A DNA stretch of 64,000 nt from Blastobasis lacticolella (Eukaryota; Arthropoda; Insecta; Lepidoptera; Blastobasidae), in assembly GCA_905147135.1 (NCBI GenBank), contig LR990045.1, positions 15,104,173 to 15,168,172 on the forward strand. Direction: 5' to 3'. Shown piece after piece: positions 19,793 to 47,142 of the stretch. A model generated the notes under the pieces. It was not told the DNA's origin. It worked only from the letters and a program-made list of their open reading frames with translations, and ran no database searches. The position numbers and the translations under genes are program-made. Position 1 is the first letter of the stretch; the number at the start of each line of letters is the position of its first letter.

Positions 19793-22700
19793 TGCTAGAC
19801 TCAGTCCCCGGGGCCCAACTGCGCCAGTGGGCGCGCTTCGGGCTGGCGCGGCGGCTGGAGCGCGCGGTGCTGGCGGGGCAGGGCCGGCGGCTCCTCTCGG
19901 AGGCGGAGGCTCTCCCGCTGGCGCGCAACCTGCCGGCCCTGGTAGCGAAGTGCGACGCGCTACACGCGGCAGTGGAGAAGGGGTCGCTGCTCGAGTTGCA
20001 GGTATTGATGGTAACTATTTTAGTAAGTAGCCGTGAGGTAGTTAGATTTTTGGTTCAGAGCTATGTAGATAAGGATGTCAGCTTAATCCTTGCAGTAACA
20101 AGTTGACGCATGTTGACGGATAGATAGATAGATAGATATATCCGGGCCATTTCCGCATTCGGGCGAACTCGCGCCCATTTTGCGTGGATATGGTATACTC
20201 CAAGATACCCTATTGTTCCTGCCATCCCAACTCCTCCAGGAAACGCAGCAATCCTTTCAGCTTTGCAAACGTCTCTGGAAGGGTTTGTGGTTGTCCGAGA
20301 TGCTCATGCCTGTATGTTGTCACCCCCTCGCATGTCCGCAGGATATGTGCTGCTGTCTCCTCCTCCCTCAGGCAGGCTCTGCACAATGGGCTGTCGGTGA
20401 GACCTATGGTGAAGAGGTGTTTATTAAATGGACCGTGTCCCGTTAAAGCTCCGGTTACCAGACGGAGTTGTTTTTTGGTTAGTTTTAAAAGCCTTTCTGA
20501 AAGGGGGGGGTTAATTTTCGGTAGAGCCTCCTTGGCTTGTCTGCATCCCTCTAGTGATGACCAGAGTTGGTTATGTTTTACCTTGATTCTATCCATCAGG
20601 TGTTTACGGGTCCATGCAAATGGCATAGGTATAATTGGTTCTGGGCCAGTGGGCTTCGTGCTTGAGCCTCTTCTGGCCAACTCGTCAGCTGCGTCGTTCC
20701 CTCTCGATCCACTGTGTCCTTTAATCCATTGTAGGGTTATGGGATTTGTTTTACATACCTCATTTAAGCAATTGCGGCAGTCGAGTAGAAGCCCCGAGGT
20801 TGTGTTGTTGTTTTCAAGGGCCATAAGTACTGCCCTGCTGTCTGATAAGATCCTAATAGGCTGTTGTTCTACCTTCTTGTCCCGTACCGCGTGTGTGGCT
20901 AGGATGATTCCCATGCACTCCGCTTGAAAGATCGTGTTGTACTTACCCAGTGGGGCAGCTATTTTGATGTTTAGGTCTTCGGAGAAAACTCCGCAACCTG
21001 TACCTGAGTCTGTTTTGGACCCGTCAGTAAAGATCCTTACTTCTCGTATGTTTTGGCCCTCCCGCGGGTCCTCGTACAGTTGGATCTTGTACTTCTTGAC
21101 CGTTTCTACCTGCTTTGATATTCGGTCGCTAATGGCCTCCATCATTGGTTCCATTTTTGTTTCATCGTAGTAAAGTACCGTATGCGGGAGCGGCACTTTG
21201 TCCAATAGATTTGAGTGTTTTAAGCGTACCATAGCTATTGTTGCCTCTTGTTGTACGTGAAGGTGTAGTGGTGTTAGGTTGAGCATAGCTTCCAGGGCCG
21301 CAGTTGGGGTTGTCCTCATGCAGCCGCTAACTGCCATGCAGGCTAACCTTTGCAGTTTTTGTAATTTTGCTATTGTGGTGGATTGCTTGGTTTTAGTCCA
21401 CCATACTACCGCTCCGTAGCAGAACATAGGCCTAATCACTGTTTTGTATAGCCACATTATGACTTTGGGGGATAATCCCCAGGACTTCCCTATCATCCTC
21501 CTGCATTGCCAGAAGGATATTGTAGCTTTGTTGTACCTTGATTCAATGTGGTTGTTCCAGTTTAATTTGTTATCAAGTATTACTCCTAGATATTTTACCT
21601 CCGTTGATAGAGTAAGTTGTGTTTTAAAGAGACTGGGTAGTCTATAGTTACCTAAAGTCCGTTTATTCGTAAACATTACCATCTCTGTCTTCGTTGGATT
21701 AACTGAGAGTCCATACTCATTACACCACAGTTCCACCATTTTCAGAGCCCTCTGTGTAACTCCAGTGACGGTGTCCGCGTTGTTTCCAGTAATGAGTATG
21801 GCCAGATCATCAGCATAACCTACTGTAAAAAAATAATTAGAGTTTAGTTTAGATATTAGTGTATTAGCCACCAAATTCCATAGAAGAGGTGACAGGACTC
21901 CACCTTGTGGGCAACCTCTTACCACTGATACCTGTTTGTTAGGATTACTATCTAGTTGAATGACTCTTTTGCTAAGCATGTTCTCTATCCATCCCGAGAT
22001 AGTTTCCGAGACATTGTGTTTGTTTAATGCGTTTTTAATGCTTGTGAAATTAGTTTTGTCAAAGGCCCCCTCTATATCTATAAAAGTACCTAGACATATT
22101 GCTTTATTTTGAATTGCATTTTCGATTTTCCCCACTACTGCATGCAGTGCCGATTCTGTAGATTTACCCTTTGTATATGCATGTTGATTCTTGTGCAGGG
22201 GATGTTTTATGAGTGCCTTATCTCTAATTAGCACTTAGCACAGACGTTCAAGGGTCTTGAGGAGGAAGGAGGTAAGACTGATTGGTCTGAACGATTTCGT
22301 ATCGGTGTAATCGCTTTTTCCTGGCTTTGGTATAAAGGTGACTCTTACCTTCCGCCATTTAGACGGTATATATCTGTGAGCCAAACATGCTCTTAATATA
22401 TCCGTCAGCAGGTGTATCATGCGTTCGCCTGCCCATTTTAAAAGTCCAGGGAAGATTTCGTCTGGCCCCGCTGCTTTAAATGTTTGGAAACTGTTAATGG
22501 CCCAGTTTACTGACTCACTGGTAACTACTTCACTTGCAATTTTCCAGTCCTCTGTGGTGGGTGTGTATGCCTCCTCGGTGATATCCGAGTTGTTTGTATT
22601 GTGGATTTTACAACCGGGGAAGTGTGTTTGAAGCAGGGTTTCCTCCGACTCCTCAGCAGTGCTTGTCATTGTACTGTCTGGTTTGCGCAGTACACCTTGT

Positions 22701-25700
22701 TGTGTTTCCATAGGTTTGGATAGGACTTTCCTTACCCGGTTTGCCTGTTCGTTGGATTCGATGTTGGTACAGTACTTTTTCCATGTTGTGTACTTCATGT
22801 ACCTGATTTCTTTTTTGTACTTTGCTTTTTCATCTTTGTATAATTCCCAGTCTTCCTCAGATCTAGTGTTCATTGCTCTGTTGAACCGTTGTCTCACCTT
22901 TTTCCTAATTCTGTCTAATTTGGGACCCCACCACGGTTGCTGTTTGGCGGTGGGGTTGGAGACTCCTGGTTTGGGACAGCTGTTATGATAGCAGTTAATG
23001 ATTAACTTTGTTAGTTGTTCTACCTGTTTTTCTATTTGTTGCGTGTCGGTTAGTTTTAGTGGTTTACTCATGCGTTTAACCTCTTCCTCAACCAGAGCTG
23101 TGTATTTATTCATGTTTGTCTTTCTCGGGTTTCTACGTAGCACCGTGTTAGTATTAGCTATGTTTAAATCGTACAGAATCCACCTGTGGTCTGAACAGGA
23201 TGCCTCAGAAGAGACTCTCCAGTTCGATATTAGTTTGGCCGCGGTTTCTGTAGCTAGTGTTAGATCAATTATCGTTTGACTTCTTTTGTTTACAAAGGTC
23301 GGTTCTGCACCGTTGTTAATAATTAGCAGGTTAGTTGTGAACAGGTATTCAACTAGCAGTTTACCTCTATTGTTTTCATTCTTCATCCCCCATAGTGGAT
23401 GATGTGCATTTGCGTCCGTCCCAATAATGAGCTCCAGCTTGGATTCTTCACACCATTTCACTAGCTGGATTAGTTCATTAGATGGCGGGTCGTCCTGTTC
23501 TGGCATGTAGACTGATGCAATGACCATGTCCTGCTGCTTGGGATCTAATTTGTTGGTTATCCTTATAGCTGTTAGATCTCTGGAACAGTAATTAAGGAGT
23601 TGTTGTGCATGTATATTGTTACTAGTATATATGCATGTTCTGGGTGATTCAGTCGAATTGTATATCTTACCTCCTGTATGTAGGAGACCGCATATGCGGT
23701 TCGCCCTAATCCAGGGCTCTTGGATTAGGGCGATGGTGGTGTTGTGGACCTCCAGCCACTTGTGTAGTTGAGCCGTGGCAGTTTGACTGTGATAGAGGTT
23801 GATTTGGATGATGTTGATGTTGGGGTTAGGCGAAGTCAGCGCCATCATCCATGAGCGCTCTCTCCTCCTCGTCCAGACTCATGTCGCCTAGGTTGCGGGA
23901 GCATTCGTCGTCGCTGCCGCTAGATCCCGGTATGGCGGTATCCATCGGCAGCGCCGACGATGGCGGTAGCAGCGACTCTGTCTGGAGTGTTGTAGGGCCT
24001 GGAATGGCCGTATCCACCACAACGACTGGGCTTGGTTCTTCCGTCTGTGCCGGTGGGGTGTCCTGCTTCTCCTCCTCTTCGGCTCTTCCCGCCGGGCGCT
24101 CCGAAAACTTCCCCCCCACGACCTGAAACTTCACGTAGACTGACCCCAAACAGAAACACAGCCTACGTTCTCTCTCCAGCAGTGTGGGGACGATAGTTTC
24201 CGGAACGCTGACCACGACGAAGGTATTCCCCTTTTGCACGTCGACCTTGTGGACTCGCCACGCGTCCACCTGAGCCCAATCGTTCTGGTAGCGCAGCGTC
24301 TTGCCTATAACTTTTGCGTTAGGCCATTCGCCGGGTACCAGGATACCGCAGCGAACGCGTCGTTGGAGCTCGTGCTCTTCCTTTACACAGATGGTATCTC
24401 CACTGCGCAGGATGACATTCTGTAGCGTGTTCCTGACCCACTCTTTGGCGTCAGTACTAAGGCACCACAGCTTCAGATTACCATCTGTGTAAATCGGTTT
24501 CCCTTGGAAGCCCGGGCCCAGCCTTAAGTTATTACTTGCTGCCTCCATGATCTTCTGGCAGAGTAGCATTTCCACCTCAGTGGCTTGTTCCCGGCCCAGA
24601 TGATTTTTCTGGTTGGTGACCCCCACCACCAAGTTTGGTTTCGCTGCATCAGCGTAACTGCCAGGCTGTGGTCTACGCGGAGTCGCAAACTTCTGTCGTT
24701 TAGGACCCTCTCTCGGCGTGATGGTATCGTCGAGACGGTTCCTCTTGACTGGGGTTTGCGCCTCCTCGTGACCAGCAATACCTTGTAGCGTAGTTCCGAG
24801 GTTCCTACATGGCCGGTACGCCTTTGGAGGCGGTCTGCCCACCACAGGATGAGTTGCCTCATCCGAGGCCGGCAGCCCAGCGTCCTTGGACGTCCCAGGT
24901 CGGGGTTCCCCTTCGCTAGAAAGAGAGGCAAGGCGTCTGTATTCCTTTGCCCTCTTTTTCTTGCTTGGCCTCACTTTCCGGGTCCTCTCAGCCACCTTGG
25001 CCGGTACCCTCGGGGCCACCAGAGTCCATCCCTCGTCCATCGGATCGGGCTCTGGTTGTTGTTGTAAGGTTGTGGTCACCTGGCTCGGTGTCGCTTCGCT
25101 AGGCCCAGCAGCAGAGTTATCTGCCACCGTGTTCCCAACTACTGCCACTCCGTAACCTCAACTTCGACGGTGGGGCCGCTCGTACCGGCCGGCCCTGGTC
25201 CCAGGGATTTCTCCGTGGAACCAACACCGACTGGTATGGGGCCCGATGGCCGCCTGCTACTTGTCGGAGGCTTGCCTCCCCTACCGCGCTGTCCCTGCGC
25301 GTGCATGTTTTTGGATGCTGTTGATTTTTTGCAGTTTTTGGTATGCATATTGGAGTACTGCTGGTTTTGCTTTGCTGGTTGGATGTTGACGGATTCTGGC
25401 AGCAGCTGGAATTGATCGCTAGGATGACGATGATGATGACATTATAGAGTAACACCCCCGGTGACAACCGGTCATTACTGCTTATGGACTTACAGCTTGA
25501 GTATCTGAATGCACTTTTCAATATAATGGCGAACTCTGGCTGGCAGATTTACCGCTAGACGCTGAGACATGATTTACCGCTAGAATGAGAAGGAGAAAGA
25601 GGAAGAGAACAACTATTAACAATCCGTATTCTCCCATAAAGCTCCTCCGACCAATATGATAGAGGAGTTAACACCGACCACACTAGTGGTAACTTGAGCT

Positions 25701-28650
25701 ATCCGTTGCTAGATTTTAAGATACCAGTAGTATGTATGATCTGTGAACAATGGAACCCCGAATCCAACAAAATGTACTGTTAAGTAGTTTAACACAATAT
25801 TATTTGTTAAAAGCTGAATGCACCGAAATAGTATAATTTGTTTCAGGAACTACTTGAAAACGAATACAATCGCCGTAAATACGCGATGTGCTGCGACGAG
25901 GCCGGGGTCGGCTTACTGCACAAAGCGATTTATTACGACTACATGGACATCGCTGAATGGCTCGTCAAGAACTATCCAGAGCTAGTTCATCAAAGGGATT
26001 CTGTAAGTAGAGTAGTGAGTAAAGCGTAGCAAGTCCTACGACGCTACATAATTGCTACGAAATAGCTACGTATTACATTTCAGCAACATCCATTTTTTTT
26101 CCATCCATTCACAGGAAATAATATCAGATCGAAATATAAAAACGCCTTTCATTTGTTACAAATAGAACGATGCGCGTTCTAATATTTTTAATAGATATTA
26201 TGAGTTATTATTTTTTATGAAATAAGCCAGGTAGGGGTTATCGTTTTTGGTTTGCGTGACGAATCTCATGGTTCGAAATTATAAAGGTCTCGTCGTTGGA
26301 TTTGGAATGTATGTTTCATACATTTACTATATTACAGCGTAGGTAGCCTAGTGGTTAAGGGGTCCGACTGGTAAGCGAAAGGGTAAAGTTTCGAGAGCTC
26401 ATACCGCAGTACCGCCATGTACCAATGAATAATTTCTCTGTAATTCTGAAAACTATGTAATTACTAGATCTGGCAAATCTCGGATTAAGGTCAAGGCGGG
26501 CCCCTGGCCCTCGTACGCGAAAGCACAACCGGGACATTAACGCCGAAATGATAATGACATGTACTCGTAAATTCACATTACATTGCCCTACTCAATAAAT
26601 CAATTTTTACTTTTTATTCTATGATATGTACTATCTAATAACAGGCTCAATAGTAGACCCACCTAAAAATAGCCAACACTGCAATACTAGAAACAATGTA
26701 AACAACACCCATAAAATGTGTTTTTTGCGTCTAGTAACCTTTGTAATAAGTAAATGTCCTGTCCAACTTAAATAACCAATGTATTATGGATACAGCAACA
26801 AGACAAAAGGCCCCCAAATTCATTGTAATTATACCCGTATTTTACGTAAATTATTCCTCAATTACCCATAAAAACACCTAGTACGTAGTTTAGGTCGTCT
26901 ATGCACGAAGGTGTTCAAATATTCAGGTTGTATAGTTTTAGGACATACCTATTAGGCCTAGATAGCTATGTCGATCACACACGAGGTGGTTATTGCCCTG
27001 GAAAATAAAGTCGGTGGAATGCTTTACATAATTTTGTCGCCCTTCGAAAGCGTCATTATCTTTCCCAGGCCGCAATGAAAAAATACATGAAATGCCCAAT
27101 CCATTAGCACTAAAAGCAAATATGAGTTGAATCACGCATAGACAGATAGGAACTAATTAGAGGGACTTTCTTCATAATAATTCAGACAGACAGCGACTTG
27201 ATTACATTTAGTTTAGATCAGTTGAGTTATTGTAGACGTTATGTAGCCGTAGACGTCATTAGATAGACGTAGACGTAGTTGTAGACGTAGACATTACGTT
27301 ATTGTGACGTGTTGTCAAGTGGAGACCACGATTGAGCAAGCAACGGACTCACTACGGACGGACTAAGAAAAGCAGGAAGGCGTACCCCGATCCCCCGCAT
27401 GTTGCGCGGGGGCACAAACGGGATTTAATGCTAAGATGATGAGGATGAGACATTACGTTATTGTAGACGTGTTCTCAAGTGGAGACCATCCTGGGCATCC
27501 TGTGGCTTGATCCAGTGACAATTTGTAGAAACGGCTGGCAGTGACTTTGGTTCTGTAAAACTGAAGAGTGCGATTTAGGAGCGACAAGTAGGCCGATTTT
27601 AAATTTTAATCTTTAATTAATTTATTTGATACCAACAGGTTAAATAATAGTTTATTGGTGTAAGAAGAAGGTGTAAAAAGAGCCATATTTTAGTAGCTGA
27701 TTTGTACCGAGAAAGTATGCTTGACTAGTCACATAGTGCTCTCGGATACTGACATTCGCCATTATCACCATCAGTACCGAGCCTCCCACACCTCTCGACT
27801 TACCCCTCGGTTCCCTTTGACCGCTGCCCAAAAGAGCCATCATAAACTGTTTGCTGTCATCGACTTATATTCAAAGGGGAGCAGCACGCCTCTCCACTAC
27901 ACGGCGGTGCAACTCCAGTGTTGCAATTACAGCAACGACCCAAAAGACCAATCATGAGTTGTATTGCCAGAAAGGCCGCACGCCTCTCCACTACAGCGGA
28001 GAGCGTGGCGGCGCTGTTGGAGAGCGTAGTGCGACCTTATCCTTTGCTTACGGTGGCTATCTTATCCTTGCGGCTAAGTCTTCACAGTGCTGCTGCTGTC
28101 GCGCTGTTAATTAAAACCCAATTGCAAGACTCATGGGGGTTATGAGCGACAGCTACCGCTTTCTATCTTAAACTATCTGCTATCACCGAGTTGTATTCCC
28201 AGGAGGGCCGCACGCCTCTCTACTACAGTGGAGAGCGCGGCGGTGTGCCTTGCACTGCTGGAGGGTGCAGGGCAACCTTATGCCTTTGAAAACAGTGTTT
28301 ACCTTATCCTAGCAGCTTAGTCTTCACATTGCGGTCGCATTGTTAATTGAAACCCAACTAAAAGGCTACCAAATCTACGTTATGAGCGACAGCTGGCTAT
28401 GTTGGAGGCTTTGCCCAATGCTTTCCATCATGAGCTGTCACCAAGTCGTATTTCCAGGAGGGCCGCACGCCTCTCCACTACACGGCGGTGTGCCGGGCGG
28501 GGGGCCGCGCGGCGGCGCTGCTGGAAGGCGCGGGCGCGGCGCGGGGCGCGCGGGACGCGGCCGGCCGCACGCCAGCCGGCTACCGCGGCGCTGGCCGCAC
28601 TCTGCTAGCGCTGCCTGCGCCGCCGGCCATGCCTGACAACGGGAACCCGG
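19793..28650 (+). CDS. Ankyrin module A (exons 1-3 of the fusion gene)
   Basis: Exon 19793-20001 encodes a Leu/Arg-rich helix stretch ending in 'LHAAVEKGSLLELQ'. Exon 25847-26002 continues 'ELLENEYNRRKYAMCCDEAG' and then 'LLHKAIYYDYMDIAEWLVKN'. Exon 28458-28650 opens with 'EGRTPLHYTAV' and is over 75 percent GC. Together they make about three ankyrin repeats. Donors are gtattg, gtaagt and gtgagc. The first intron holds the LOA-like LINE, and the second ends in tandem copies of the third exon's acceptor region. The next coding exon is 10.7 kb downstream and fits in phase (G|GG). Confidence 0.8.
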
Positions 28651-37600: not shown

Positions 37601-40600
37601 GGTTGGTGCTATTCTACTCTGCCGGACACCATACGGCAAGTAAAAGTATAGTATATTGTACACAATTTCATAATATCGATTAAGTTCGCGCTGTCGTCGT
37701 CAGCAAAACCTAATTACTTATTGAATGCGTCGTAATAAAATTATGAGAATTTAAGAAAAATGAAGGTTTTCTCTGGATAGTACAACATGGAGTTCTTCAA
37801 GGAAGAGGTGAAAAGGTTTTTACGCGTGGATGATGCCCCTGGTATTGCAAACGTCCATAGGCAGCTGTGACTGCTTACCATCATGCAGGCTGTAAGCTTG
37901 TATGCCACCTTAGTGGTATAAAAAAAACATACGCCTAGTTGTGCGAACTGCCATATGTCAGCGCTTATACAATTTTGCTATTTTATAAAACACATGATAC
38001 GTCAAATGCCAAGGTTCCATTACTCATGCATTGTGTAATGTCCATTATTATGATGATTACAGCCCTCAATGTGGTACGACCTTGACATTAAGCTCTTTAT
38101 TTTAATAATGTATTCTAATTAATGCAATATTTATTATTTATCGAACACTTAACTTTTATAACTTTAAAAAACTGACAATTCAAATAACCGGCAACCGGCA
38201 ATACCCATCTTTCACGTAATTTAAGAAATTTTACTTCAATTGAAGTTTAATTCTTTATAAGGACCTACATACTAATTAAATAATACAAACTTAACATTAT
38301 GGCATTTTTTTTTAATTATAGCAAAAACAAAATAAACTCCTGTAACAAAGATAGCATTTGCATCTAGTCGGTTGAAAATCTGCCGTTGTCTCTTTTAAAT
38401 TGCAAACCATTTCACCATTAGTAGGTTTACCTTGAACCCCGCCATCGATTGCAATTCCACACAGCTCACTACACCCACATCCATCATTCTATGAATTTAT
38501 TGCCCAACGGTGACGCCTTTATTCTGATTTTATTGGACAACTCAATTCCCACGCTGCTGAATTACAAAAGTAATTGTGTACCCAGTTTGCACGAATCGCC
38601 AATCAAATTAACAAATTACCCAAATGACGTGTCATTCCGATAACATTTTCAGCCTTGGTGGTTATAATATTACATAAAGTTTCAGTGTTATTGTTAATGT
38701 TTATAAGATTTATAACTAAAATATTGATTGGTATCAATAAAGCCGTAAAGAGAACAAACGTCTATTTGAAAATTATCGCCTATATCCCGGAATATCGCGG
38801 AATATTACGTTCCATTCGGTTTGGAGCCGCCCGCCTGGGTTAGTACTTCCACCTTACAGAATATCAAAGCCAAACAATACTACCTTAAATAGAATTGTGT
38901 TCCTGCCAGTAAGGTATCCAGTGTTCCATTAGGATCCGTGGCTTTGGTATTGAAGGCGCACATTTATGTAAATTTTCTGCCAGAGCTACATGTCCCGAGG
39001 TTACAGATCAGTAGCCGTATTCACAATGATTCGAAACCGTTTCCGAACGATTCGACACGAAATTCGTGAGCGGCGAATCCGTGTCGATCGATTCGAAAAC
39101 TGTTATTCTGAATCCCCATAGATTCTACGGAAACTCTACTCTCTATAACAAATGAAAATTAACTGAAACCACATTTTCCTAAGAACTTTTGCGGGGTCCT
39201 TTGTCGATTCCGTATCCGAATCCGATTTCCGAGCCATTGTGAATACGGCTACAGCAACGCCTTGGTGATACCCCTGGTCGTTTCCCTGCCGAATGACATA
39301 AATAGGAGTTTATCCTGATATATGACCGCTTCCACCCTCAGGGTTGGTGATAAAGCGACACAACATCCGCATCTGGTGCCATGACTGCGACATGGCGAAG
39401 TTGCAGCGCGTCGTGTGGGAGGGGCACGGCGCGCGGCTGCTCAGCGAGGTCTCCAACCAGCCGGTCGTCAAGCGGTTCTTGGAGGCCGTGCCTTATATCA
39501 TGGTGAGATGCGATACCCCAGGTATTGTTAATGTCTATTGGCAGCGGTGATCACTTTCCACCAGGACATTGCCAGATGCCCTATTATTTAAAAAAAATGT
39601 ATGTTGCGAGTTATGCGATATATAAAATTGCTCTATTTGTGCGAACTTACAACACGGGCCATCGTTGAACAAGAGCGGTGGCGAAGGACGGTAGAAATTT
39701 CTGTTGTCTATGGCTTACCTATTGGGTTTTATGAGTTTACAGCTAATAAGAAAAATTTAACTTGGATGGGATTCGAACGAAATAATTTCAAATTGAAATG
39801 GATACATACTGTATAAAATGTACAATCCATTGACATTCTAAATAATAAGTACCTACATCAGCCCTATGTAAAACAAAGTAAAATAAAATGCGTAGAAACA
39901 TGACTATTAATGCTCTAAAACGTTCGAAACCACCAGAACACAATCCGCGAGATCCATAGCGCGGTGGCGCAGAACGACCTGGAGGGGCTGATGAAGCTCG
40001 CCGGGGACCCCGTGCCGCCGCAGATCCTCTCCAGCCGGGACTCGCACAACATGACCGTCATGCATAAGGTTTGATACCCTTTAACTTTGTTATCTTTTCG
40101 CTTGTAGATTACCACTTTCCCTTAGCTTTATCAGAGATAAGTCAGCGATTATTGTTGCCGCATATCAGAGTAACCCTATTTTGCGGTACTTAGGCTATAA
40201 GTACCGTATCGTCTTACTGAAGCTATAATTATACCTTCTTTCAAATTTCATACGAAACAAATCAATTTCTGCGTATTTCTTATTGTACGTATGACAACAT
40301 AGAAAACCGAAAATATAGTAGTGGACTAAAAAATCGAATCAAGGTTGCCTAACTTTTGAAAAAAATGTCTCTTTTCAGTTTGTAATGCATTTTTTAAACA
40401 AAAATTCATATATTTACTGAAATTAGAACAATTAGGCCTTTCAAATGTTATACATAATTTTCATATAATTATATTTGCAACAAACCTAAAGTACCTTTTT
40501 AGTACATCAATCTACTTTACTGCAGCGGCTCTGTAACTTAGGACTACAAAGAGGATAATGGCTGGAGCAAAATTTAAATTAATTGGTGGAATTGGGGAGA

Positions 40601-43600
40601 GACTCATCAGCTACCCATCTGGGAGTCGTGCTTTTGGTCTCTCTCCAAAGCTGTTGAGGGGAACTTTTGTCGGACTTCCTTTCCACCTTTGCGCAAGCCG
40701 GATGACCTATGGCCCACACGGCAATCTCTTGGGTAATCTCTTTGCCAAAAACTTAACTCTGGATGAGGGGGGAGCTGCACCGCCTACCATCTCGCGGTGT
40801 GAGAGCAGCATGCCTGAAGTTCATTTCACCCAAAAATTTATAAGACGTGTGCTTCTCTCCCTATACATCCGGAAGTCCAGTGGGCCTGACGGCATTCCGG
40901 CTATTGTTCTTAAAAAATATGCTTCCGCGTTATCTCCCGTGCTAATGCGCTTATTCGAGCTTTCATACACCTCTGCAACAGTGCCATCTTCGTGGAAGCT
41001 AGCCCTTGTGCATCCGATACCCAAGAATTATAAGGTTATAATTCAGACCCATCAAATTACAGGCCTTTAGCGGTAACCTCCTTGCTCTAAGGTGATAGAG
41101 CGGGTTATCAATATACAGCTCCTCGGATACCTAGAGGACCACCAGCTGATCAGTGACCGTCAATATGGCTTTCGCCATGGGCGCTCAGCTGGTGACATAC
41201 TTGTGTATCTAACGCACCGGTGGGCTGAGGCTGTCAGTCTTGACATAGCCAAGGGTCTAGCCATAGATCGGGTCTGGCACAGGGCACTACTATCAAACCT
41301 CCCGAAGTACGGTATCTCCGAGGGGCTCTGCAATTGGGCATCCAGCTTTCTGTCTGGACGGACCATCCAAGTCGTTGTCAATGGATGCTGCTCCGATACC
41401 AAGACTATAAATGCTGTAGTACCCCAAGGTTCAGTGCTATCTCCCACGCTGTTTTTTCTGCATATCAATAATATGCTGTATATCCCCAGTATTCATTGTA
41501 ATGTGGATTACAGTACTGGAGATGCTAGTTATACTGGCCGAGCGAATGTCCCTCGTTTCGAGTTGTCGGAAAGCCGAATTAGACTTGTGTCGAATATCGA
41601 ACATTCCTTGGAGCAAGTTGCTCAGTGGGGCAGACTAAATCTGGTCCAAATCAACCACTTTCCATCAGGTGGCCCGTTTGCCTGTTTGCCTACTGTACGA
41701 CATAAAAAAAAAACCCTCGAAGACCTGTGTCTGCGCATTTTCCGCCAAAAAAGATCCTTTTGACATAGTGCCGCAGTTTCAAGAAACACCCCTTTCCATC
41801 TCAAAAAGTATCGGGGTCCTCGGTGTCGACATATCGGATAGCATGCGATTCCGGAGTAACCTGGAAGGCAAGGCCAAACTGGCTTCGAAAAAGCTTGGAG
41901 TGCTTAACCGGTCCAAGTGATACTTCACCCCAGGGCAGCGCCTACTGCTGTAAAAGGCACAAGTGCGGCCTCATATGGAGTATTGTTCCCATCCTAGGGC
42001 CGGCGAAACTACCGACCTGTTTAATCCTCTGGACTCCGTACAGAGACGCGCCGTACGAATTGTCGATGATCCTATACAAACAAGAAAGTTGGAACCACTG
42101 GCAAACCGAAGGGACTTTGGCTCCCTGTACTATAGGGAGTGTTCCGAGGAACTTTACGATCTGGTGCCCACAGCACAATTTCGCCATCGCACCAGCCGCC
42201 GTGGGCTGAGTACTCATCGAAAAAACGTTTCTTGCTCGTACGATTTGGATGTGGAATGAGCTCCCAGCCAAAGTGTTTCCTTTGGTCTATGACATGGGAT
42301 CGTTAAAGAGGTATATTAGAGGGCAACGCATTGGTGACTCCCCTGGTGTTGCTGATGTGGCGGTGACCACTTTCCATTAGGTGGCCCGCTTGCCTGTTTG
42401 TCTGCCGTAAAAAAAAAGGACACCTGAACTAATTACTACCAAGAAGGTACGGGAACCATTAGATCACAATTCTTATAAAAATATTTTTCCAATACTTCCA
42501 GGCTGCCGGTTTAGGACATGGGAGCATACTGGGCTACATCGCCGATAGGTATCCTGAAGGTATAAATGATGTTGACAACGACGGGCGCACGCCCTTGCAC
42601 TACGCCGCTGCGGTCCGGGACGACCAGCATATGTACAACACCCTGGTCAGCCTTGGGGCAGATGAAGGAGCTACAGATAACGTAAGAATAAGCTTCATGG
42701 TACTTACAACGACACGACAGGAAAAAAAACACTATAATTGACCATGCACAGAAAAAAATATCAAACTACAGTCGAATCCGTAATACAATACACGTATCAG
42801 TACCTCTACTGCGCAAAATTCACTGCACAAACTTTTAAATCGCAACCACTATCAATTTATCACAAGGAAAGATAATGTTTACTATAAATTTCGTTTCAGA
42901 AAAATAAACCACCTGGCTATTATATAAATAAACCGCAAGAAATAGACAAAAACTTGCTAAAAGCCTTACCCGATGCGCCTAGAACTGCATCAAATGCATA
43001 TCCACCTTCTTGGGACTGGAAAATATTAGACACAGAAGCAATTGTAGAATTAAACAAAAAGTCCAGGAGGAAGAATTTAAAAGCATCTAATGAAAACATT
43101 TCGTACAAAACTAATTCAAATAGTGTATCAGAGAACAAAAGTAATCGTAAGGGTGGCATGAAAGGAAGCAGCACACAGGAGTTCATAAAAGACTTGCCTG
43201 ATTTAAATGATGGCAGGAAAAAACACAATGGAAATATAAATAAGGTGAGAAAAGTGCATGTTACACAATCACGGAATGTTATTGACGTTAATTTGCAGTG
43301 CTTTTTGTTAAACATTTGCATGAACCTTTATTTTCTGCATTTTAGGAAACAGAAGAAGTTGAAGAAAATAATGACAACACAGAACCTGATGATCATAGTC
43401 AACAGGAACATACCGCGACTCAAGAAAAGGAAGAAGTACTTCAAAATATCGAAGAAGACGAAGTGGCTCCAGAAATTGGAACACACGAGGAAGATTCCGT
43501 AGGTGAAAATACAGAAAATAAAGAAGAGGCCCAAGATGAAGAAAACAAGGATGATAGTGACGGAATTGATAACAAAGACAATGATGCCCCACAAGATCTT

Positions 43601-46600
43601 AATCAAGACGAAAACATCGATACACATGCCGAACAACCATCAGAAGACATTGCAGAAATAAAATCCCAAAATGATGATAATGCAACAGAAACGAATTTCG
43701 AAAATGAACCCGAAGAAGAAGACAACATAAAAACAAGTAACGACACAAAGAGCCATGATAATGCGGAACATGAAGATGAACCCGTTGTCGATAAAAACGA
43801 AGAAGACGCTTTGAATGACGAATCAAATGGTAATAATAACGATAATATACCTCACGAAGTAGAAATAGAAAACACAACACATGAAAATGAAAACACACAA
43901 TCAGAACATGAAAATTTTATTAATAAAATTGATAATTCAAATCATGTAATTGATAATTCTAACGCCACTCTTGAGAGTGATAAATCAATTCACGTAATCG
44001 AAAACGATAATACCACTCTTGAGAGTGATACATTATATCACGTAACCAAAAACACAAAATTTGAAGAGGAAGGCGATGCGCCGACAAATGAAGGTAATAA
44101 TAATGATAATAGCGAAGATGACAATGATGTTCAAGTGCCGGGAGAGTCACAATCTGAATACAGTGACATCCATCTAAGAAGCACTGCAGAAGCTACTAAC
44201 ACAGGAAGTGCCAAGAGAGGTAACACTGACATCTCGTCTGGTACTACACACGAACAATAAAAACTTAAATAACACTTTTACTTAAAAAAATATACGGGGG
44301 TCCCTGATAAGTTCAACATTTTTAATTATTTTGCTAATTAAGGAAACGAGACCGGCCGAAATACACAGGAAAGTTTAATCGAAGGAATTATTAGTGGCGA
44401 AGCCGAAATGGATTCTCAAGATGCAAGTATTACACAGAGAGATGTAAAAGTTGAAGGAGACATCCTAGTAGTTGTAAGTATAATTTGTACATCAAGCATG
44501 TCAATTCAACCAAGTGACGAAGGTAATACGTAAATAATTGGTTTCTGTGTTTCTTAGAGTAGTACCATAAATCGTAGATAGTTCACTGTGTTCCTCACAG
44601 ACACACGTACCTCACCGTCATGAAAATTGAGTTGCCAGCTTTTTAGTTTATATGTTATCGATAATATTAGACCGCAAATGCCTGTCACCAAATAAAAGAA
44701 GTACTTGATTGCACACTCCAATTTAACTATATCTTATTTCAACAGGAAAATGAAATAGATCCCGAGGTTGCCGAATTAATTTATAGTGCTAATATGGAAA
44801 TGCTAGCTACATTAGTTTTGAATGGTGAAGGTTCGAGATTAGTAGGTAGAATATCAGGAAATTCTGAGTTACAAGCTTTCCTGGATAACGTACCGACGTA
44901 TATGGTAAATATCATTACTGCTAAATGTTAATTACAAATAGCACTGCATCACACGTATACCTAACATATGTTTTCAGCAAAAAATCAACAAGGTCCATTT
45001 AGCTGCGAGAGAAGGTAATATAAAGGATCTGCAAGCCGCGTTAGATCGACGGAAATTCGCAATAGCACGTGATCCAATTTCCCCAAATGGCGCTACGCCG
45101 TTACATGTAGCAACTGTATTTGGAAAAACTAATATCATGAAATATCTAGGAGGAAGGTTAGATTAATACAATCCTTCATGTTTATTATTTAATAGCACTG
45201 AATTTGTAAAAGGATTCAGTCAATTTCAATCCCTCGATACCTCATTTTGTATAATACTGTTCCACATTTTTATAAAGCATGTAACTGTTTCCGTCTTATT
45301 CAGCATGGACAACTTATTTCACACCCACGAGGACATGAATCCTATTCATGAGAATTTAATTTAAAATATTGTTGTGTAGGTTTCCGGAAACTTTATCAGC
45401 GGTAGATTTTGAAGGTAGAACAGCTTTACATTATGCTGCTGTAACGCCAGATAATGGTCATTATTACAATTTATTGCAACAACTTGGTGCCAATGCAAAG
45501 GATTTAGATGATGTAAGTAGTATGGAGATTGCTATCAAAACTTTAGTAATATATGAAATCTTAAAGCTATGGGTATACATTTATATTAATTTTATAACAC
45601 AGAGCGGACAGTCTGCTGAAGATTACTTCAACAATCCCAACTTACTACCATTTAATCAATTGCTTGCTGATTTTGGAATAAGTGAAGAAGCTGCACATAG
45701 CATGCTGTCAGATAAAGGTATGTAAAATTAAGCAAATAATTTATGTCACAATTAAAGACAATTTGCATTTACATCTACTTATGTATGTAGTACCTGACGA
45801 TCGTGTGTCTTCTCGGCGGGTTCTGGAAACTCCTGAAGCGCTTGACACTCTGGAGAGATGTTATCGTCTTCTAGCAGCTGCCACGCCAGCAAGAACTCCG
45901 CTATCCGCATCTTCTAATCGAGCTACACCACCTCTTGTGTTAGGTAGATTCCTCAAACGTCTCGTTTTCGATGCAATAAAAAATAGGACAACTAAACTGG
46001 ACCATGACCTGTTTGATGTTATATGGCCAGCAGTCAAAAAGCTACCAGATAATAGAAATGTCATACAAACTGTAGAAGAAGACTTCCCAGGAGGAATCAC
46101 AGCACCTGATTACTACGTCTATGAAGTGTTCCACGAATTTCTCACACCGCTCATTAAAGATCTTCACAACATAAATATTCATTCTGAATTACCCCTACAT
46201 CCACCCTCGGATTTTGCTACAAACAAAATTAAAACATCGGACCCGCTGGTTGAGTTAAATATTGATCCAAATGATGAATTTGTCTTATCTGGAGTAATAG
46301 AATGTACGCGTAACATAGATGGATTCGAATTGCCTCTTAATCTCAAAATTGGAAAATTAGAAACCATAGAAAGTATATTAACAACGGTATTAATGAAACA
46401 AGACTTTTTAAAGCATAGTGCTCAATCAAATCCAGAATCTGACCAAAGAGGGGGAACATATTATTCGTTAAATGAAATATTAGAAAAACCGTCGGAGATA
46501 TGTGCTCAGCTAGCATCTGCCGGTCTACTAATAGCTCTATGTGATAGAGAAGAGATAGATGATAGCGCCCGGTTACATGGTAAACACTGGCCATATGGAC

Positions 46601-47142
46601 GTGGGGTTTTTGTCAGTGATGACAAATCTATAGCCATTTGGGTCAACGTGCATGATCATATACGAGTGCTTGTAGCGACGCCTGTGGATGCCCCTGGAGA
46701 ATTAGGAATCCCGTACAGCAAAATGACCCATATTATGACATATTTGCATGAAAAACTTGATTTTGTCTGGGATTATAAACTTGGCCATCTGTCTAGTAGA
46801 CCGACTTTTGTTGGCGCAGCAATGCGCTTCAGTTTGATCGTCAATTTTCCCGGTCTCGCAAAGGATTCTGATAACATGAAACATCTTTGTGCCATGAGAG
46901 GACTTCAATACAGAGAAACCTTAAACGCTGACATAGCCCGAGTCAGCAACTATCAGTGCTTAAGTATGACGGAGACGGTTTGTTTTAATGATTTCATCAC
47001 TGCAACCTCGAACTTACTACACTTGGAAAAAGATTTGTCAATGCAAAATTCAGCTCACATCGCCACGATGTTAACGAACATCTTTAAAAGGAAGAGAAGC
47101 AGTTTGGCGGACTTGGATGTTTCTGAAAAAGCTGAAAATTAA
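19793..47142 (+). CDS. Ankyrin-repeat protein fused to an arginine-kinase-like pseudokinase
   Basis: Fourteen exons join in phase: 19793-20001, 25847-26002, 28458-28650, 39342-39502, 39937-40068, 42502-42681, 42900-43244, 43346-44219, 44343-44473, 44746-44904, 44978-45156, 45380-45512, 45603-45717 and 45791-47142. They give about 1,438 aa; the first exon is missing because 19793 begins mid-codon. Three homologous ankyrin modules appear: A (exons 1-3), B (exons 4-7) and C (exons 10-13). Each carries a 'GRTPLHY' or 'GRTALHY' core, for example 'NDGRTPLHYAAA'. A 291-aa acidic linker separates B from C. The last exon is a full-length phosphagen-kinase-like domain without key catalytic residues. 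No signal peptide or membrane segment was seen. It is probably a cytoplasmic scaffold; role unknown. The split of modules over 27 kb makes missed exons possible. Confidence 0.85.
20210..22234 (-). CDS. LINE ORF2, 3' part: reverse transcriptase and RNase H
   Basis: This part has 674 codons in the same frame as the preceding part after one TAA. The polymerase active site 'GYADDLAIL' and the 'GCPQGGVLSPLLWNL' motif are intact. An RNase H domain follows with its acidic residues in 'IFTDGSKT', 'QAECMGI', 'ILSDSRA' and 'GNDAADELA'. A Cys/His region ('CRACLREEETAAHIL') sits near the C-terminus. No ATG begins it, so it is not expected to be made alone unless the stop is read through. Confidence 0.8.
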   Translation of the reverse strand: MLIRDKALIKHPLHKNQHAYTKGKSTESALHAVVGKIENAIQNKAICLGTFIDIEGAFDKTNFTSIKNALNKHNVSETISGWIENMLSKRVIQLDSNPNKQVSVVRGCPQGGVLSPLLWNLVANTLISKLNSNYFFTVGYADDLAILITGNNADTVTGVTQRALKMVELWCNEYGLSVNPTKTEMVMFTNKRTLGNYRLPSLFKTQLTLSTEVKYLGVILDNKLNWNNHIESRYNKATISFWQCRRMIGKSWGLSPKVIMWLYKTVIRPMFCYGAVVWWTKTKQSTTIAKLQKLQRLACMAVSGCMRTTPTAALEAMLNLTPLHLHVQQEATIAMVRLKHSNLLDKVPLPHTVLYYDETKMEPMMEAISDRISKQVETVKKYKIQLYEDPREGQNIREVRIFTDGSKTDSGTGCGVFSEDLNIKIAAPLGKYNTIFQAECMGIILATHAVRDKKVEQQPIRILSDSRAVLMALENNNTTSGLLLDCRNCLNEVCKTNPITLQWIKGHSGSRGNDAADELARRGSSTKPTGPEPIIPMPFAWTRKHLMDRIKVKHNQLWSSLEGCRQAKEALPKINPPLSERLLKLTKKQLRLVTGALTGHGPFNKHLFTIGLTDSPLCRACLREEETAAHILRTCEGVTTYRHEHLGQPQTLPETFAKLKGLLRFLEELGWQEQ
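22235..23848 (-). CDS. LINE ORF2, 5' part: endonuclease and start of reverse transcriptase
   Basis: This part is 537 aa and starts at an ATG inside the end of ORF1. An APE-type endonuclease occupies about residues 10-230, with 'IIQINLYHS', 'ALIQEPW', 'IIGTDANAHHPLWG', 'IIDLTLATE' and 'CSDHRW' providing the usual Asn, Glu, Asp and His positions. The reverse transcriptase begins near residue 445 ('FKAAGPDEIFPGLLKWAG'). The frame is cut by a TAA at 22235-22237 and continues in the same frame in the next entry. Confidence 0.8.
   Translation of the reverse strand: MMALTSPNPNINIIQINLYHSQTATAQLHKWLEVHNTTIALIQEPWIRANRICGLLHTGGKIYNSTESPRTCIYTSNNIHAQQLLNYCSRDLTAIRITNKLDPKQQDMVIASVYMPEQDDPPSNELIQLVKWCEESKLELIIGTDANAHHPLWGMKNENNRGKLLVEYLFTTNLLIINNGAEPTFVNKRSQTIIDLTLATETAAKLISNWRVSSEASCSDHRWILYDLNIANTNTVLRRNPRKTNMNKYTALVEEEVKRMSKPLKLTDTQQIEKQVEQLTKLIINCYHNSCPKPGVSNPTAKQQPWWGPKLDRIRKKVRQRFNRAMNTRSEEDWELYKDEKAKYKKEIRYMKYTTWKKYCTNIESNEQANRVRKVLSKPMETQQGVLRKPDSTMTSTAEESEETLLQTHFPGCKIHNTNNSDITEEAYTPTTEDWKIASEVVTSESVNWAINSFQTFKAAGPDEIFPGLLKWAGERMIHLLTDILRACLAHRYIPSKWRKVRVTFIPKPGKSDYTDTKSFRPISLTSFLLKTLERLC
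23826..25148 (-). CDS. LINE ORF1 (gag-like, RNA-binding)
   Basis: ORF1 is 440 aa from ATG at 25148. The N-terminal half is Pro/Ser/Lys-rich and probably disordered. Residues about 165-320 form a compact domain with 'REQATEVEMLLCQKIMEAA' and 'LKLWCLSTDAKEWV', resembling the DUF4780-type domain found in some insect LINE ORF1 proteins. The C-terminus is acidic, with no CCHC knuckle. It would package element RNA. An earlier frame (25139-25348, 69 aa, Gly/Pro-rich) overlaps the start by 10 bases and might be an extended N-terminus after a frameshift. Confidence 0.75.
   Translation of the reverse strand: MAVVGNTVADNSAAGPSEATPSQVTTTLQQQPEPDPMDEGWTLVAPRVPAKVAERTRKVRPSKKKRAKEYRRLASLSSEGEPRPGTSKDAGLPASDEATHPVVGRPPPKAYRPCRNLGTTLQGIAGHEEAQTPVKRNRLDDTITPREGPKRQKFATPRRPQPGSYADAAKPNLVVGVTNQKNHLGREQATEVEMLLCQKIMEAASNNLRLGPGFQGKPIYTDGNLKLWCLSTDAKEWVRNTLQNVILRSGDTICVKEEHELQRRVRCGILVPGEWPNAKVIGKTLRYQNDWAQVDAWRVHKVDVQKGNTFVVVSVPETIVPTLLERERRLCFCLGSVYVKFQVVGGKFSERPAGRAEEEEKQDTPPAQTEEPSPVVVVDTAIPGPTTLQTESLLPPSSALPMDTAIPGSSGSDDECSRNLGDMSLDEEERALMDDGADFA
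26336..26560 (+). repeat. tRNA-Thr-headed SINE, copy 3 (internally deleted)
   Basis: The tRNA-like head ('tagcctagtggttaag') is followed directly by the SINE tail ('ggtcaaggcgggcccc' and 'cgggacattaacgcc'). The middle of the body is missing. It lies in the intron after exon 2 of the fusion gene. Confidence 0.7.
27290..27489 (+). repeat. SINE-like insert between about 40-bp direct repeats
   Basis: 'gacattacgttattgt' followed by 'gtcaagtggagacca'-type sequence occurs at 27290-27329 and 27449-27489 with few differences. Between them is a block ending in 'ggatttaatgctaagatgatgaggatg', like a SINE tail. The duplication is much longer than usual for retrotransposition. Confidence 0.55.
27880..28457 (+). 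repeat. Tandem copies of the next ankyrin exon's acceptor region
   Basis: The start of the exon at 28458 ('ggccgcacgcctctccacta') recurs at about 27888, 27978 and 28208. Each time it follows 'gttgtatt'-like sequence and, in two cases, 'ccag'. The intervening parts also repeat ('ttatgagcgacagct' near 28139 and 28380), giving units of about 240 bp. The upstream copies lose the ankyrin frame quickly. Confidence 0.75.
29697..30070 (-). repeat. tRNA-Thr-headed SINE, copy 4
   Basis: Full-length minus-oriented copy: the tail lies at 29697, and the head ends near 30070 with 'gggattcgaacccgct' and 'cttacgagtcagatacc'. Confidence 0.8.
30470..30724 (+). repeat. Interspersed repeat family S and (AAAT)n run
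   Basis: The 'cttcccaccgtctggc' ... 'tttaaactatgcaacggatt' order is shared with blocks at 57.24-57.68 and 59.05-59.25 kb. It is followed by an (AAAT)n microsatellite at 30702-30724. No ORF. Confidence 0.6.
31513..31862 (+). repeat. tRNA-Thr-headed SINE, copy 5
   Basis: Full-length plus-oriented copy, closest in sequence to the one at 8540-8900: same head, 'ctcttacggtgagggaaaa' and 'gttcccctggtagcaggg'. Confidence 0.85.
32949..33014. repeat. 66-bp near-perfect palindrome
   Basis: The two 33-base arms ('ttatttatagcaagaaat...' and its mirror) differ at only about four places, with no spacer. It would form a stable cruciform in DNA or a long hairpin in RNA. It could be a collapsed MITE. Confidence 0.75.
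34793..34965. mobile_element. Hairpin/MITE-like element
   Basis: 'tctaaaaaggcca' at the left is mirrored by 'tggcctttttaga' at the right. Inner blocks 'ccacaaacttatctg' and 'cagataagtttgtg' also pair. It is about 170 bp with no ORF. Confidence 0.6.
36205..36375 (+). pseudogene. THAP-domain-like remnant
   Basis: One frame reads 'FCFPKDVILLNKWTSAI', then 'WSPTEGSFVCSKHF', then a stop. The FPKD...W...C..H layout matches the second half of a THAP zinc finger. The usual N-terminal Cys pair is not in this frame, so it is broken. THAP domains occur in P-element transposases and in host proteins derived from them. Confidence 0.5.
36537..36760 (-). repeat. Dispersed repeat fragment
   Basis: The block 'ataaaatccgttccgtagtttttacg' style sequence followed by 'gtaacaaacatcc' resembles a common lepidopteran repeat end. 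It has no coding content. Confidence 0.35.
37380..37640 (+). repeat. Interspersed repeat family R, copy 4
   Basis: Nearly full-length plus-oriented copy, in the same order as 38-305, ending at 'gccggacaccatacggc'. Confidence 0.8.
37830..37930 (+). repeat. Jockey-like LINE 3' tail
   Basis: 'gatgcccctggtattgcaaa', 'ccataggcagctgtgactg' and 'ccttagtggtataaaaaaa' follow the order of the Jockey-like element's 3' end, ending in an A-rich tail. It is 5'-truncated. Confidence 0.6.
39011..39252. mobile_element. MITE with 18-bp perfect terminal inverted repeats
   Basis: gtagccgtattcacaatg at 39011-39028 is exactly mirrored at 39235-39252. The 242-bp element is non-coding and rich in 'gattcg' words. 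It lies just upstream of the exon at 39342. Confidence 0.75.
39342..43244 (+). CDS. Ankyrin module B (exons 4-7 of the fusion gene)
   Basis: Exon 4 encodes 'DMAKLQRVVWEGHGARLLSE' and ends 'FLEAVPYIM'. Exon 5 has 'IREIHSAVAQNDLEGLMKLA'. Exon 6 has 'ILGYIADRYPEGINDVDNDG' and then 'RTPLHYAAAVRDDQHMYNTL'. Exon 7 starts 'KNKPPGYYI' and becomes a Lys/Asn/Ser-rich tail. This is the same order as modules A and C. All four exons are phase 0 except the start of exon 4, which completes a split Gly codon. The donor of exon 5 (gtttga) is weak. The intron between exons 5 and 6 contains the Jockey-like LINE. Confidence 0.85.
39510..39600 (+). repeat. Jockey-like LINE 3' tail
   Basis: 'ccccaggtattgttaatgtc', 'tggcagcggtgatcacttt' and an A-run follow directly after the donor of the exon ending at 39502. 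The intron start is thus within about 10 bases of a transposon tail. Confidence 0.55.
40557..42420 (+). pseudogene. Jockey-like non-LTR retrotransposon, decayed
   Basis: Fragments of one ORF2 lie in order. First, 'SSGPDGIPAIVLKKY' and 'SSWKLALVHPIPK' (40.86-41.02 kb). Then 'ISDRQYGFRHGRSAGD' and 'VPQGSVLSPTLFFLHINNM' (41.1-41.48 kb). Then 'RPHMEYCSHPRAGE' and 'QRRAVRIVDDPIQ' (41.96-42.09 kb). A tail ends in an A-run near 42.41 kb. Frames shift several times, and the polymerase active site reads NVDYS where YADDS is expected, so it is inactive. The endonuclease part is missing, so the copy is 5'-truncated. It sits in an intron of the fusion gene, same orientation. Confidence 0.8.
43346..44473 (+). 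CDS. Acidic low-complexity linker (exons 8-9 of the fusion gene)
   Basis: Exon 43346-44219 encodes 291 residues dominated by Glu, Asp, Asn, His and Thr. A short internal repeat appears as 'DNSNATLESDKSIHVIEN' followed by 'DNTTLESDTLYHVTKN'. Ending the exon at agag|gtaaca and resuming at 44343 (ttaag|gaaac) keeps the frame and adds 'NETGRNTQESLIEGIISGEA'. If this intron is not removed, the frame stops at 44258-44260 and the protein would lack module C and the kinase-like domain. The linker is probably disordered and highly charged. Confidence 0.75.
44746..45717 (+). CDS. Ankyrin module C (exons 10-13 of the fusion gene)
   Basis: Exon 10 ends 'QAFLDNVPTYM', matching 'FLEAVPYIM' of module B. 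Exon 11 has 'VHLAAREGNIKDLQAAL' and 'NGATPLHVATVFGKTNIMKY'. The exon 11-12 junction splits an Arg codon to give 'GGRFPETLSAVDFEGRTALH'. Exon 13 carries 'SGQSAEDYFNNPNLLPFNQL'. Codon use is AT-rich, unlike modules A and B. Exon phases are 0, 2 and 1 and fit exactly. The module leads straight into the kinase-like exon. Confidence 0.85.
45791..47142 (+). CDS. Arginine-kinase-like pseudoenzyme domain (last exon)
   Basis: This 450-codon terminal exon covers both halves of a phosphagen kinase. The N-terminal domain shows 'VFDAIKNRTTKLDHDLF' and 'GITAPDYYVYEVFHEFLTPL'. The ATP-guanido domain shows 'EFVLSGVIECTRNIDGFELP', 'HWPYGRGVFVSDDKSIAIW' and 'RPTFVGAAMRFSLIV'. Compared with canonical arginine kinases, the STRVRCGR motif reads SGVIECTR (Arg124 and Arg126 lost) and NEEDH reads NVHDH (Glu225 lost). 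The reactive Cys271 of CPTNLG is Arg (codon 46798-46800), and the RGTRGEHTE loop is shortened with Arg309 and Glu314 gone. Arg229 and Arg280 equivalents remain. Catalysis is unlikely; a binding or scaffolding role is inferred. The C-terminal tail is Lys/Arg-rich. No intron interrupts it. Confidence 0.85.

What the first reader, a model, noticed from the sequence alone, without database searches (positions are those of the whole stretch)
19793..47142. Ankyrin-repeat protein fused to a dead arginine kinase
Fourteen exons in perfect phase link three ankyrin modules and an acidic linker to a full-length phosphagen-kinase-like domain. In that domain the reactive Cys, the catalytic Glu of NEEDH, two ATP-contacting Arg residues and the RGTRGEHTE loop are replaced or missing, while the fold-defining stretches remain. 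I know of no described ankyrin-phosphagen-kinase fusion. It could sense arginine, phosphoarginine or nucleotide, or dock on true arginine kinase. What is seen: frames, junctions, residues. What is known: arginine kinase catalytic positions. The function is inference.
Basis: partly seen in the sequence, partly recalled or inferred. Interest (0 to 1): 0.88.

Follow-up and report, generated by a model that had tools for sequence, protein, structure and literature searches.

The report
Ankyrin scaffold with dead arginine kinase
A moth gene for an ankyrin-repeat scaffold appears to end in one of two ways, with a docking motif or with an arginine-kinase-shaped domain that has lost its catalytic residues; the kinase-shaped version is kept in many insects, and I found no published description of it.

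Summary

Two corrections. The gene is longer: 22 exons, 10556-53276. And the kinase-like domain is one exon with its own stop; the transcript can instead skip to exons for a Dpy-30 motif and a fourth ankyrin module. Both versions are open and in phase here; the skipping junction is seen in moth, locust and fly proteins. Deposited models from four holometabolous orders and a termite join ankyrin to this domain, some named "Arginine kinase"; my paper searches found no description.

Best reading (inference): a non-catalytic binding module, exchanged for a Dpy-30 dock by splicing. Arginine sensing is disfavoured; nucleotide or phosphate binding is not excluded. The partner is unknown. C. elegans ARCP-1, an ankyrin/DPY-30 ciliary scaffold, is a lead whose homology was not tested.

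The parts
10556..10634 (+). exon 0: start codon, MESVKKWL..., donor GGT|gtaagt
   Evidence: tblastn with P0001, P0002, P0012 and P0025, not P0023; phase
19793..20001 (+). exon 1, start of ankyrin module 1
25847..26002 (+). exon 2, ankyrin module 1
28458..28650 (+). exon 3, end of ankyrin module 1
39342..39502 (+). exon 4, start of ankyrin module 2
39937..40068 (+). exon 5, ankyrin module 2
42502..42681 (+). exon 6, ankyrin module 2
42900..43244 (+). exon 7, conserved linker
   Evidence: 77 of 115 residues identical to Plodia P0002
43346..44219 (+). exon 8, fast-changing acidic linker
   Evidence: 67 of 291 residues identical to Plodia P0002
44343..44473 (+). exon 9, linker
44746..44904 (+). 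exon 10, start of ankyrin module 3
44978..45156 (+). exon 11, ankyrin module 3
45380..45512 (+). exon 12, ankyrin module 3
45603..45717 (+). exon 13, last shared exon; its donor can join exon 14 or exon 15 (both take one carried base)
45791..47142 (+). exon 14: pseudo-phosphagen-kinase domain, single exon with its own stop TAA
   Evidence: Pfam, fold, uninterrupted ORF in relatives
46294..46302 (+). positions of R124 (Val here) to R126 (Glu here)
46651..46653 (+). position of catalytic E225 (His here)
46798..46800 (+). position of reactive C271 (Arg here)
47035..47106 (+). conserved tail beyond the arginine-kinase fold: ...IATMLTNIF then basic residues
   Evidence: conservation; the arginine kinase 1bg0 ends at model residue 416
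47876..47953 (+). exon 15 of the form that skips exon 14
48000..48179 (+). possible own start of a short Dpy-30/ankyrin form (ATG at 48000), running into exon 16
   Evidence: separate short gene models in other insects
48052..48179 (+). exon 16, Dpy-30 motif
   Evidence: PF05186 E=5.4e-14
48724..48912 (+). exon 17, linker
50163..50367 (+). exon 18, ankyrin module 4
50605..50756 (+). exon 19, ankyrin module 4
51991..52200 (+). exon 20, ankyrin module 4
53097..53276 (+). exon 21, end of ankyrin module 4 and stop

Best explanation
The locus is one insect gene of 22 exons that makes an ankyrin-repeat scaffold with two alternative ends. Splicing from exon 13 either enters exon 14, a single-exon phosphagen-kinase fold with its own stop, or skips it to exons 15-21, which give a Dpy-30 motif and a fourth ankyrin module. 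Shown: the exons, phases, fold, residue changes, their conservation, and the skipping junction in deposited proteins. Inferred: the kinase-like domain has no phosphotransfer activity and works as a fixed protein-binding module, with the ankyrin modules and the conserved basic tail as contact surfaces, so that the cell chooses which partner the scaffold carries by choosing the end. Where it acts is not known; cilia or flagella are only suggested by the Dpy-30 motif.
For: Both isoforms are open and in phase in the window: A 1465 aa, B 1395 aa. The exon 13 to 15 junction predicted here (SDK|GTSN...NGHMDIP) is present in Anticarsia P0122 and Plutella P0124 and, slightly changed, in two proteins of unnamed contigs, P0123 and P0125; its counterpart is in locust and Drosophila. 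A motif count found ankyrin 3 with Dpy-30 but no kinase in 17 of 360 proteins fetched. The exon 13 to 14 join is at the same place (D-K or D-Q, then V-P or a like pair) in 104 of the 120 proteins, and at least 10 of the other 16 differ only in the residues next to it. Proteins read from unnamed contigs hold the kinase-like exon as one frame; the 38 C-termini printed end within 23 residues from the start of the NIF motif. Catalytic Glu absent in 114 of 114 and 121 of 121 (termite included); Cys to Arg in 114 of 114 and 120 of 121; no Arg at 126 or at 330 in either set. Constraint: 364 of 450 residues identical to Plodia in exon 14 against 67 of 291 in the acidic exon 8. Tail: Phe 431 in 121 of 121, basic residues at 432 and 433 in 121 of 121. 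The only other PF00217 place found in the genome is a canonical arginine kinase, so the enzyme role seems filled.
Against: No transcript of this species was seen; database models come largely from gene predictors, and isoforms of one species count several times. 35 of 360 proteins are modelled with the kinase-like domain and Dpy-30 in one chain, so the two ends may not exclude each other in all insects. Many insects are annotated with a short Dpy-30/ankyrin protein of its own instead. The Tribolium model P0037 has about 25 extra residues at the join. R229 and R309 are invariant and R280 is often kept, which could mean ligand binding rather than a pure protein contact. No partner, location or assay is known. 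C271 mutants are called 'partially active' in the title of a paper cited in PMC12467219, so inactivity rests on the sum of changes.
Confidence: 0.6

Rival explanations
1. The domain is a ligand sensor: it no longer transfers phosphate but still binds a nucleotide or phosphate through R229, R280 and R309, and passes this on to the ankyrin modules.
For: R229 and R309 equivalents are Arg in 114 of 114 and 121 of 121 sequences; N223 is invariant and H227 is missing once in 235; among the structural matches, entries titled transition-state or ternary complex rank above those titled substrate-free.
Against: R124 is nearly always gone, R126 and R330 always, and 126 is Glu or Asp in nearly all, a negative charge at a phosphate site; H185 is replaced in the 17 sequences, window included. 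R280 varies (R 57, K 47, other 10 of 114). AlphaFold tends to give closed forms (recalled), so that likeness is weak support. For arginine as ligand: E225, C271, E314 and most of loop 63-68 are replaced.
Confidence: 0.22
2. The domain is an enzyme with changed chemistry, for example another substrate, using the retained His and Arg residues.
For: Strong conservation of a whole fold, of the WPYGRG motif and of N-x-x-[DE]-H.
Against: Residue 225 is variable (Q, H, L, K, R) and 314 lies in a variable loop, unlike a catalytic site.
Confidence: 0.06
3. Exon 14 is a separate gene, and the fusion is an annotation error.
For: In this window an in-frame ATG lies just upstream of the acceptor (frame), and most hits show the domain alone, as frames of contigs.
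Against: In the 38 proteins printed, residues before the acceptor are not shared between groups (a few near relatives share some), and many frames begin exactly at it; the exon starts inside a codon that exon 13 completes; a start at the upstream ATG would use intron sequence; 104 of 120 models join it to ankyrin at the same place.
Confidence: 0.05
4. The domain is a decaying relic of an arginine kinase without function.
For: Loss of catalytic residues.
Against: Covered nearly end to end in 114 of the 120 hits; 81% identical to Plodia while the acidic exon 8 is 23%; new residues such as Arg at 271 are kept.
Confidence: 0.02

Closest known systems
Arginine kinase (phosphagen kinases, PF02807 + PF00217)
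   Different: Guanidinium contacts, most of the specificity loop and three of six essential Arg replaced; no intron where the moth's own enzyme has one at Gly56; extra basic tail; attached to ankyrin repeats.
C. elegans ARCP-1 (F34D10.6), passages read in PMC6953435
   Same: Ankyrin repeats with a DPY-30 domain; two transcripts.
   Different: No kinase domain is mentioned in the passages read (the term 'kinase domain' occurs 0 times). The paper reports a sensory-neuron scaffold that binds PDE-1 and localises it to BAG cilia; nothing of this is known here, and common descent was not tested.
Uncharacterised insect ankyrin/phosphagen-kinase and Dpy-30/ankyrin models (e.g. Plodia LOC128674871 and LOC128674872, Galleria LOC113520751)
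   Same: Same gene by sequence and domains.
   Different: No function is given in the listings; several are named 'Arginine kinase'. That the two Plodia entries, on contigs of the same length, are alternative ends of one gene is proposed here, not shown.
ASB9 with brain-type creatine kinase (PDB 6v9h, title seen)
   Same: An ankyrin protein and a phosphagen kinase in contact.
   Different: There the two are separate proteins, and the title calls the kinase the substrate of ASB9.

Membership tests
Phosphagen kinase fold family | N- and C-terminal Pfam domains above cut-off | tested here: met
   114.9 bits (cut-off 22.4) and 34.8 bits (cut-off 25.7)
Phosphagen kinase fold family | complete fold | tested here: met
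Arginine kinase (enzyme) | guanidinium contacts E225, C271, E314 | tested here: not met
   (E314 in a poorly aligned loop); roles of these residues from PMC11075012 passages
Arginine kinase (enzyme) | essential arginines 124, 126, 229, 280, 309, 330 | tested here: not met
   three of six lost here (V, E, C), three kept; R280 as the sixth is recalled
Arginine kinase (enzyme) | phosphotransfer activity | not testable with these tools
   needs an assay
Dpy-30 motif proteins (isoform B) | PF05186 above cut-off | tested here: met
   52 bits, cut-off 22
ARCP-1 family | ankyrin repeats plus DPY-30 in one protein | tested here: met
   ARCP-1 side from PMC6953435 passages
ARCP-1 family | common descent (sequence similarity to ARCP-1) | not tested
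ARCP-1 family | binding of PDE-1 and place in cilia | not testable with these tools
   needs experiments

The most novel reading that the evidence does not exclude
Insects carry a splice-switched scaffold: one ankyrin chassis ends either in a Dpy-30 dock or in a dead arginine kinase. The dead site is not empty but rebuilt: Arg at 271 goes together with Glu or Asp at 126 in nearly all relatives, perhaps as a salt bridge that plugs the pocket, while the new basic tail binds the partner. The termite state (C271 and R124 kept, E225 and R126 already lost) would be a step on the way. The exon may have entered as an intronless copy of an arginine kinase into an older ankyrin/Dpy-30 gene of the ARCP-1 kind.
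Probability: 0.3. Interest if true: 0.75.

Novelty: new variant of a known kind. Interest (0 to 1): 0.62.

Why it matters
Pseudoenzymes are well known among protein kinases (recalled), but no paper of the library held 'arginine kinase', 'creatine kinase' and 'pseudoenzyme' together (114 papers hold two of the three; the list puts papers with more terms first, and its first ten hold only two), and I met no phosphagen-kinase pseudoenzyme in the other searches. This one is kept in four holometabolous orders with a termite relative, sits in an exon that splicing can include or skip, and has a clean control in the same genome, a canonical arginine kinase. That makes questions testable: what a phosphagen-kinase fold does without catalysis, and why an ankyrin/Dpy-30 scaffold would trade its dock for it. 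It also matters for practice: database entries call it 'Arginine kinase', which can mislead gene counts and choices of RNAi targets.

Tried and rejected
Rejected: a chance ORF (Pfam E=4e-33; relatives); a decaying copy (conservation); a separate gene (start within a split codon; join shared by 104 of 120 models). Isoform with kinase-like domain and Dpy-30 in one chain: modelled in 35 of 360 proteins; in the window I saw no strong donor near the end of exon 14, only a weak one by eye; left open. Amphipathic tail: its hydrophobic moment is not outstanding (best window rank 12 of 438), so no claim of a Dpy-30 or calmodulin helix is made. Non-insect members of the kinase fusion: not settled, since each protein search lists only the best 120; crayfish P0233 and damselfly P0231 are ankyrin/Dpy-30 without the kinase, but may be partial models. 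Six gene identifiers of insect relatives gave no paper. Passages of four papers holding both 'arginine kinase' and 'ankyrin repeat' were opened; there the words belong to different genes or to a reference. Mosquito passages (PMC9725125) speak only of live arginine kinases with the CP[ST]N[IL]GT signature. A first look for residue numbers in PMC12467219 and PMC11075012 found nothing; a second, with other spellings, gave the residue roles in PMC11075012 and only general remarks in PMC12467219. Other Dpy-30 and PF02807 places in the genome could not be searched.

Full report
What was checked. The window lies in a 577-Mb genome (contig C6, 15104173-15168172), a moth by its nearest relatives. The 14 exons have AG and GT borders, every phase fits, and the joined frame runs 1439 codons to the stop at 47142. 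Exon 14 (45791-47142) matches both halves of the phosphagen kinases: PF00217 at 4.2e-33 and PF02807 at 2.3e-8. The stretches before it hold ankyrin repeats.

The gene is longer than reported. tblastn of the Aphomia relative P0001 (1837 aa) put its first 26 residues at 10556-10633, ahead of exon 1, and its last 370 or so on exons between 48003 and 53273. With exact borders I get 22 exons, numbered 0 to 21. Exon 0 ends in GGT|gtaagt and completes the first codon of exon 1. Exons 16 and later hold a Dpy-30 motif (PF05186, 5.4e-14) and a fourth ankyrin module.

Two ends. Exon 13 leaves one base. Exon 14 takes it and ends in its own stop (isoform A, 1465 aa). Exon 15 takes it too, and exons 15-21 then read on without a stop to 53276 (isoform B, 1395 aa). 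Isoform B was written down after I had seen the skipping in locust P0161 and Drosophila P0171, but before I had looked at the moth junctions; the junction it predicts, SDK|GTSN...NGHMDIP..EEGRYLA, is present with small changes in Anticarsia P0122, Plutella P0124 and two proteins from unnamed contigs of about 4 kb, P0123 and P0125. By motif search over all 360 proteins fetched, 17 have ankyrin 3 and Dpy-30 without the kinase and 35 hold kinase and Dpy-30 in one chain; 86 show Dpy-30 without the other marks (motifs are strict, so these are lower bounds). Many insects are annotated with a short Dpy-30/ankyrin protein of its own, for instance Plodia LOC128674872; the window has an ATG at 48000 from which such a form of 371 aa is open. 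So the kinase-like domain is best seen as an alternative terminal exon.

The join to ankyrin. In 104 of the 120 proteins the kinase-like part follows D-K or D-Q at the same place; of the other 16, ten have the place with other neighbouring residues, Tribolium P0037 has about 25 extra residues, Anopheles P0108 lacks two, and four could not be read by the motif. Several rows are isoforms of one species, and most are predicted models.

Single exon. A profile search with the domain alone listed 120 of 189 hits, mostly frames read from unnamed contigs. In the 38 printed, the residues before the splice acceptor are not shared between groups, though a few near relatives share some; many frames begin right at it; and all end within 23 residues from the start of the NIF motif. 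A canonical arginine kinase gene in the same genome has an intron at Gly56; the pseudo-domain has none there. An intronless copy inserted into an older ankyrin/Dpy-30 gene is a fair guess, not a result.

Dead site. Numbering was fixed on a tick arginine kinase chain copied, in which the positions named below carry the residue recalled for Limulus. Here S63 is F, G64 P, Y68 T, R124 V, R126 E, H185 G, E225 H, C271 R, N274 F and E314 R; G66, R129, N223, D226, H227, R229, R280 and R309 are kept. The moth's own arginine kinase (L001) keeps every tabulated position. R330 is Cys. E314 lies in a loop that aligns poorly, so that row is less sure. According to passages of PMC11075012, E225, E314 and C271 hold the guanidinium, loop 62-68 recognises arginine, and arginines 124, 126, 229, 309 and 330 support the phosphates; R280 as the sixth essential arginine is from recall. 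In 114 relatives (120 hits, six left out for short alignments: P0010, P0034, P0035, P0059, P0084, P0106) residue 225 is Q 65, H 33, L 15, R 1, and 271 is Arg in 114; R229 and R309 are kept in 114. In the further 120 plus the termite, 225 is Q 68, H 37, L 14, K 1, R 1; 271 is Arg in 120 and Cys in the termite; 126 is E 111, D 9, N 1; R124 survives in 2, the termite included; R330 in none. The two sets may share species, and the second is largely of unnamed origin. The termite P0106 keeps C271 and R124 but has lost E225 and R126, which suggests stepwise loss.

Where else. The 120 listed of 224 hits to ankyrin 3 plus kinase all carry PF00217 and ankyrin families; 36 rows are Lepidoptera, the rest beetles, Hymenoptera, Diptera and one termite (orders assigned by me from the species names). 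Ankyrin/Dpy-30 without kinase appears in locust, damselfly and crayfish models, some perhaps partial. In the own genome PF00217 rings at two places only, this one and the canonical enzyme.

How it may work. Shown: one gene, two in-phase ends, a kept fold without catalytic residues. Inferred: the domain is a non-catalytic contact module, and splicing decides whether the scaffold carries it or a Dpy-30 dock. Arginine sensing is unlikely from the residues. Nucleotide or phosphate sensing is the chief rival. A partner cannot be named. The Dpy-30 motif and C. elegans ARCP-1, an ankyrin/DPY-30 protein that binds PDE-1 and places it in sensory cilia (passages of PMC6953435), make a ciliary or sensory role worth testing, no more; homology to ARCP-1 was not tested.

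Print and databases. Five searches paired ankyrin with arginine kinase, phosphagen kinase or guanido phosphotransferase. The last listed 20 papers with both 'arginine kinase' and 'ankyrin repeat'; I opened passages of four and saw of the other 16 only titles and starts of abstracts. None that I saw describes the fusion. Only open-licence papers are held. In databases the protein is present for many insects, uncharacterised or named 'Arginine kinase'. Hence: the kind is known from deposited sequence, the variant is undescribed as far as I can see.

Noticed in passing
20210-25157 (-): Non-LTR retroelement in intron 1: endonuclease frame (22238-23878) and reverse transcriptase with RNase H (20213-22234) in two successive frames, with a further long frame upstream (23826-25157).
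   Followed up: partly
40537-41763 (+): Reverse transcriptase fragment in intron 5 (PF00078 on 41077-41760; no match on 40537-41067).
   Followed up: no
59560-62662 (+): Pieces that look like an LTR-type element: zinc knuckle and integrase core matches, both under the Pfam cut-off.
   Followed up: no
19127-19876 and 27862-28498: Degenerate copies of the starts of exon 1 (four in register, the real one included) and exon 3 (likewise four) lie just upstream of the real exons, acceptors included. Either exon-edge duplication or satellite-like spread.
   Followed up: partly
56227-58021 (-): Two frames match CCDC34 (PF13904, E=4.1e-10, and 2.9e-5 under the cut-off), so a CCDC34-like gene may face the ankyrin gene.
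   Followed up: no
3689-5359 (+): Open frame of 556 codons without a Pfam match.
   Followed up: no
43922-44050: Short internal repeats in the acidic exon (NHVIDNSNATLESDKSIHVIENDNTTLESD), seen in the translation.
   Followed up: no
L001 1-3627: The only other PF00217 place found in the genome: a canonical arginine kinase of two coding exons with all tabulated catalytic residues.
   Followed up: yes
P0106 (termite protein): Termite relative keeps C271 and R124 but not E225 or R126: possible intermediate state.
   Followed up: partly
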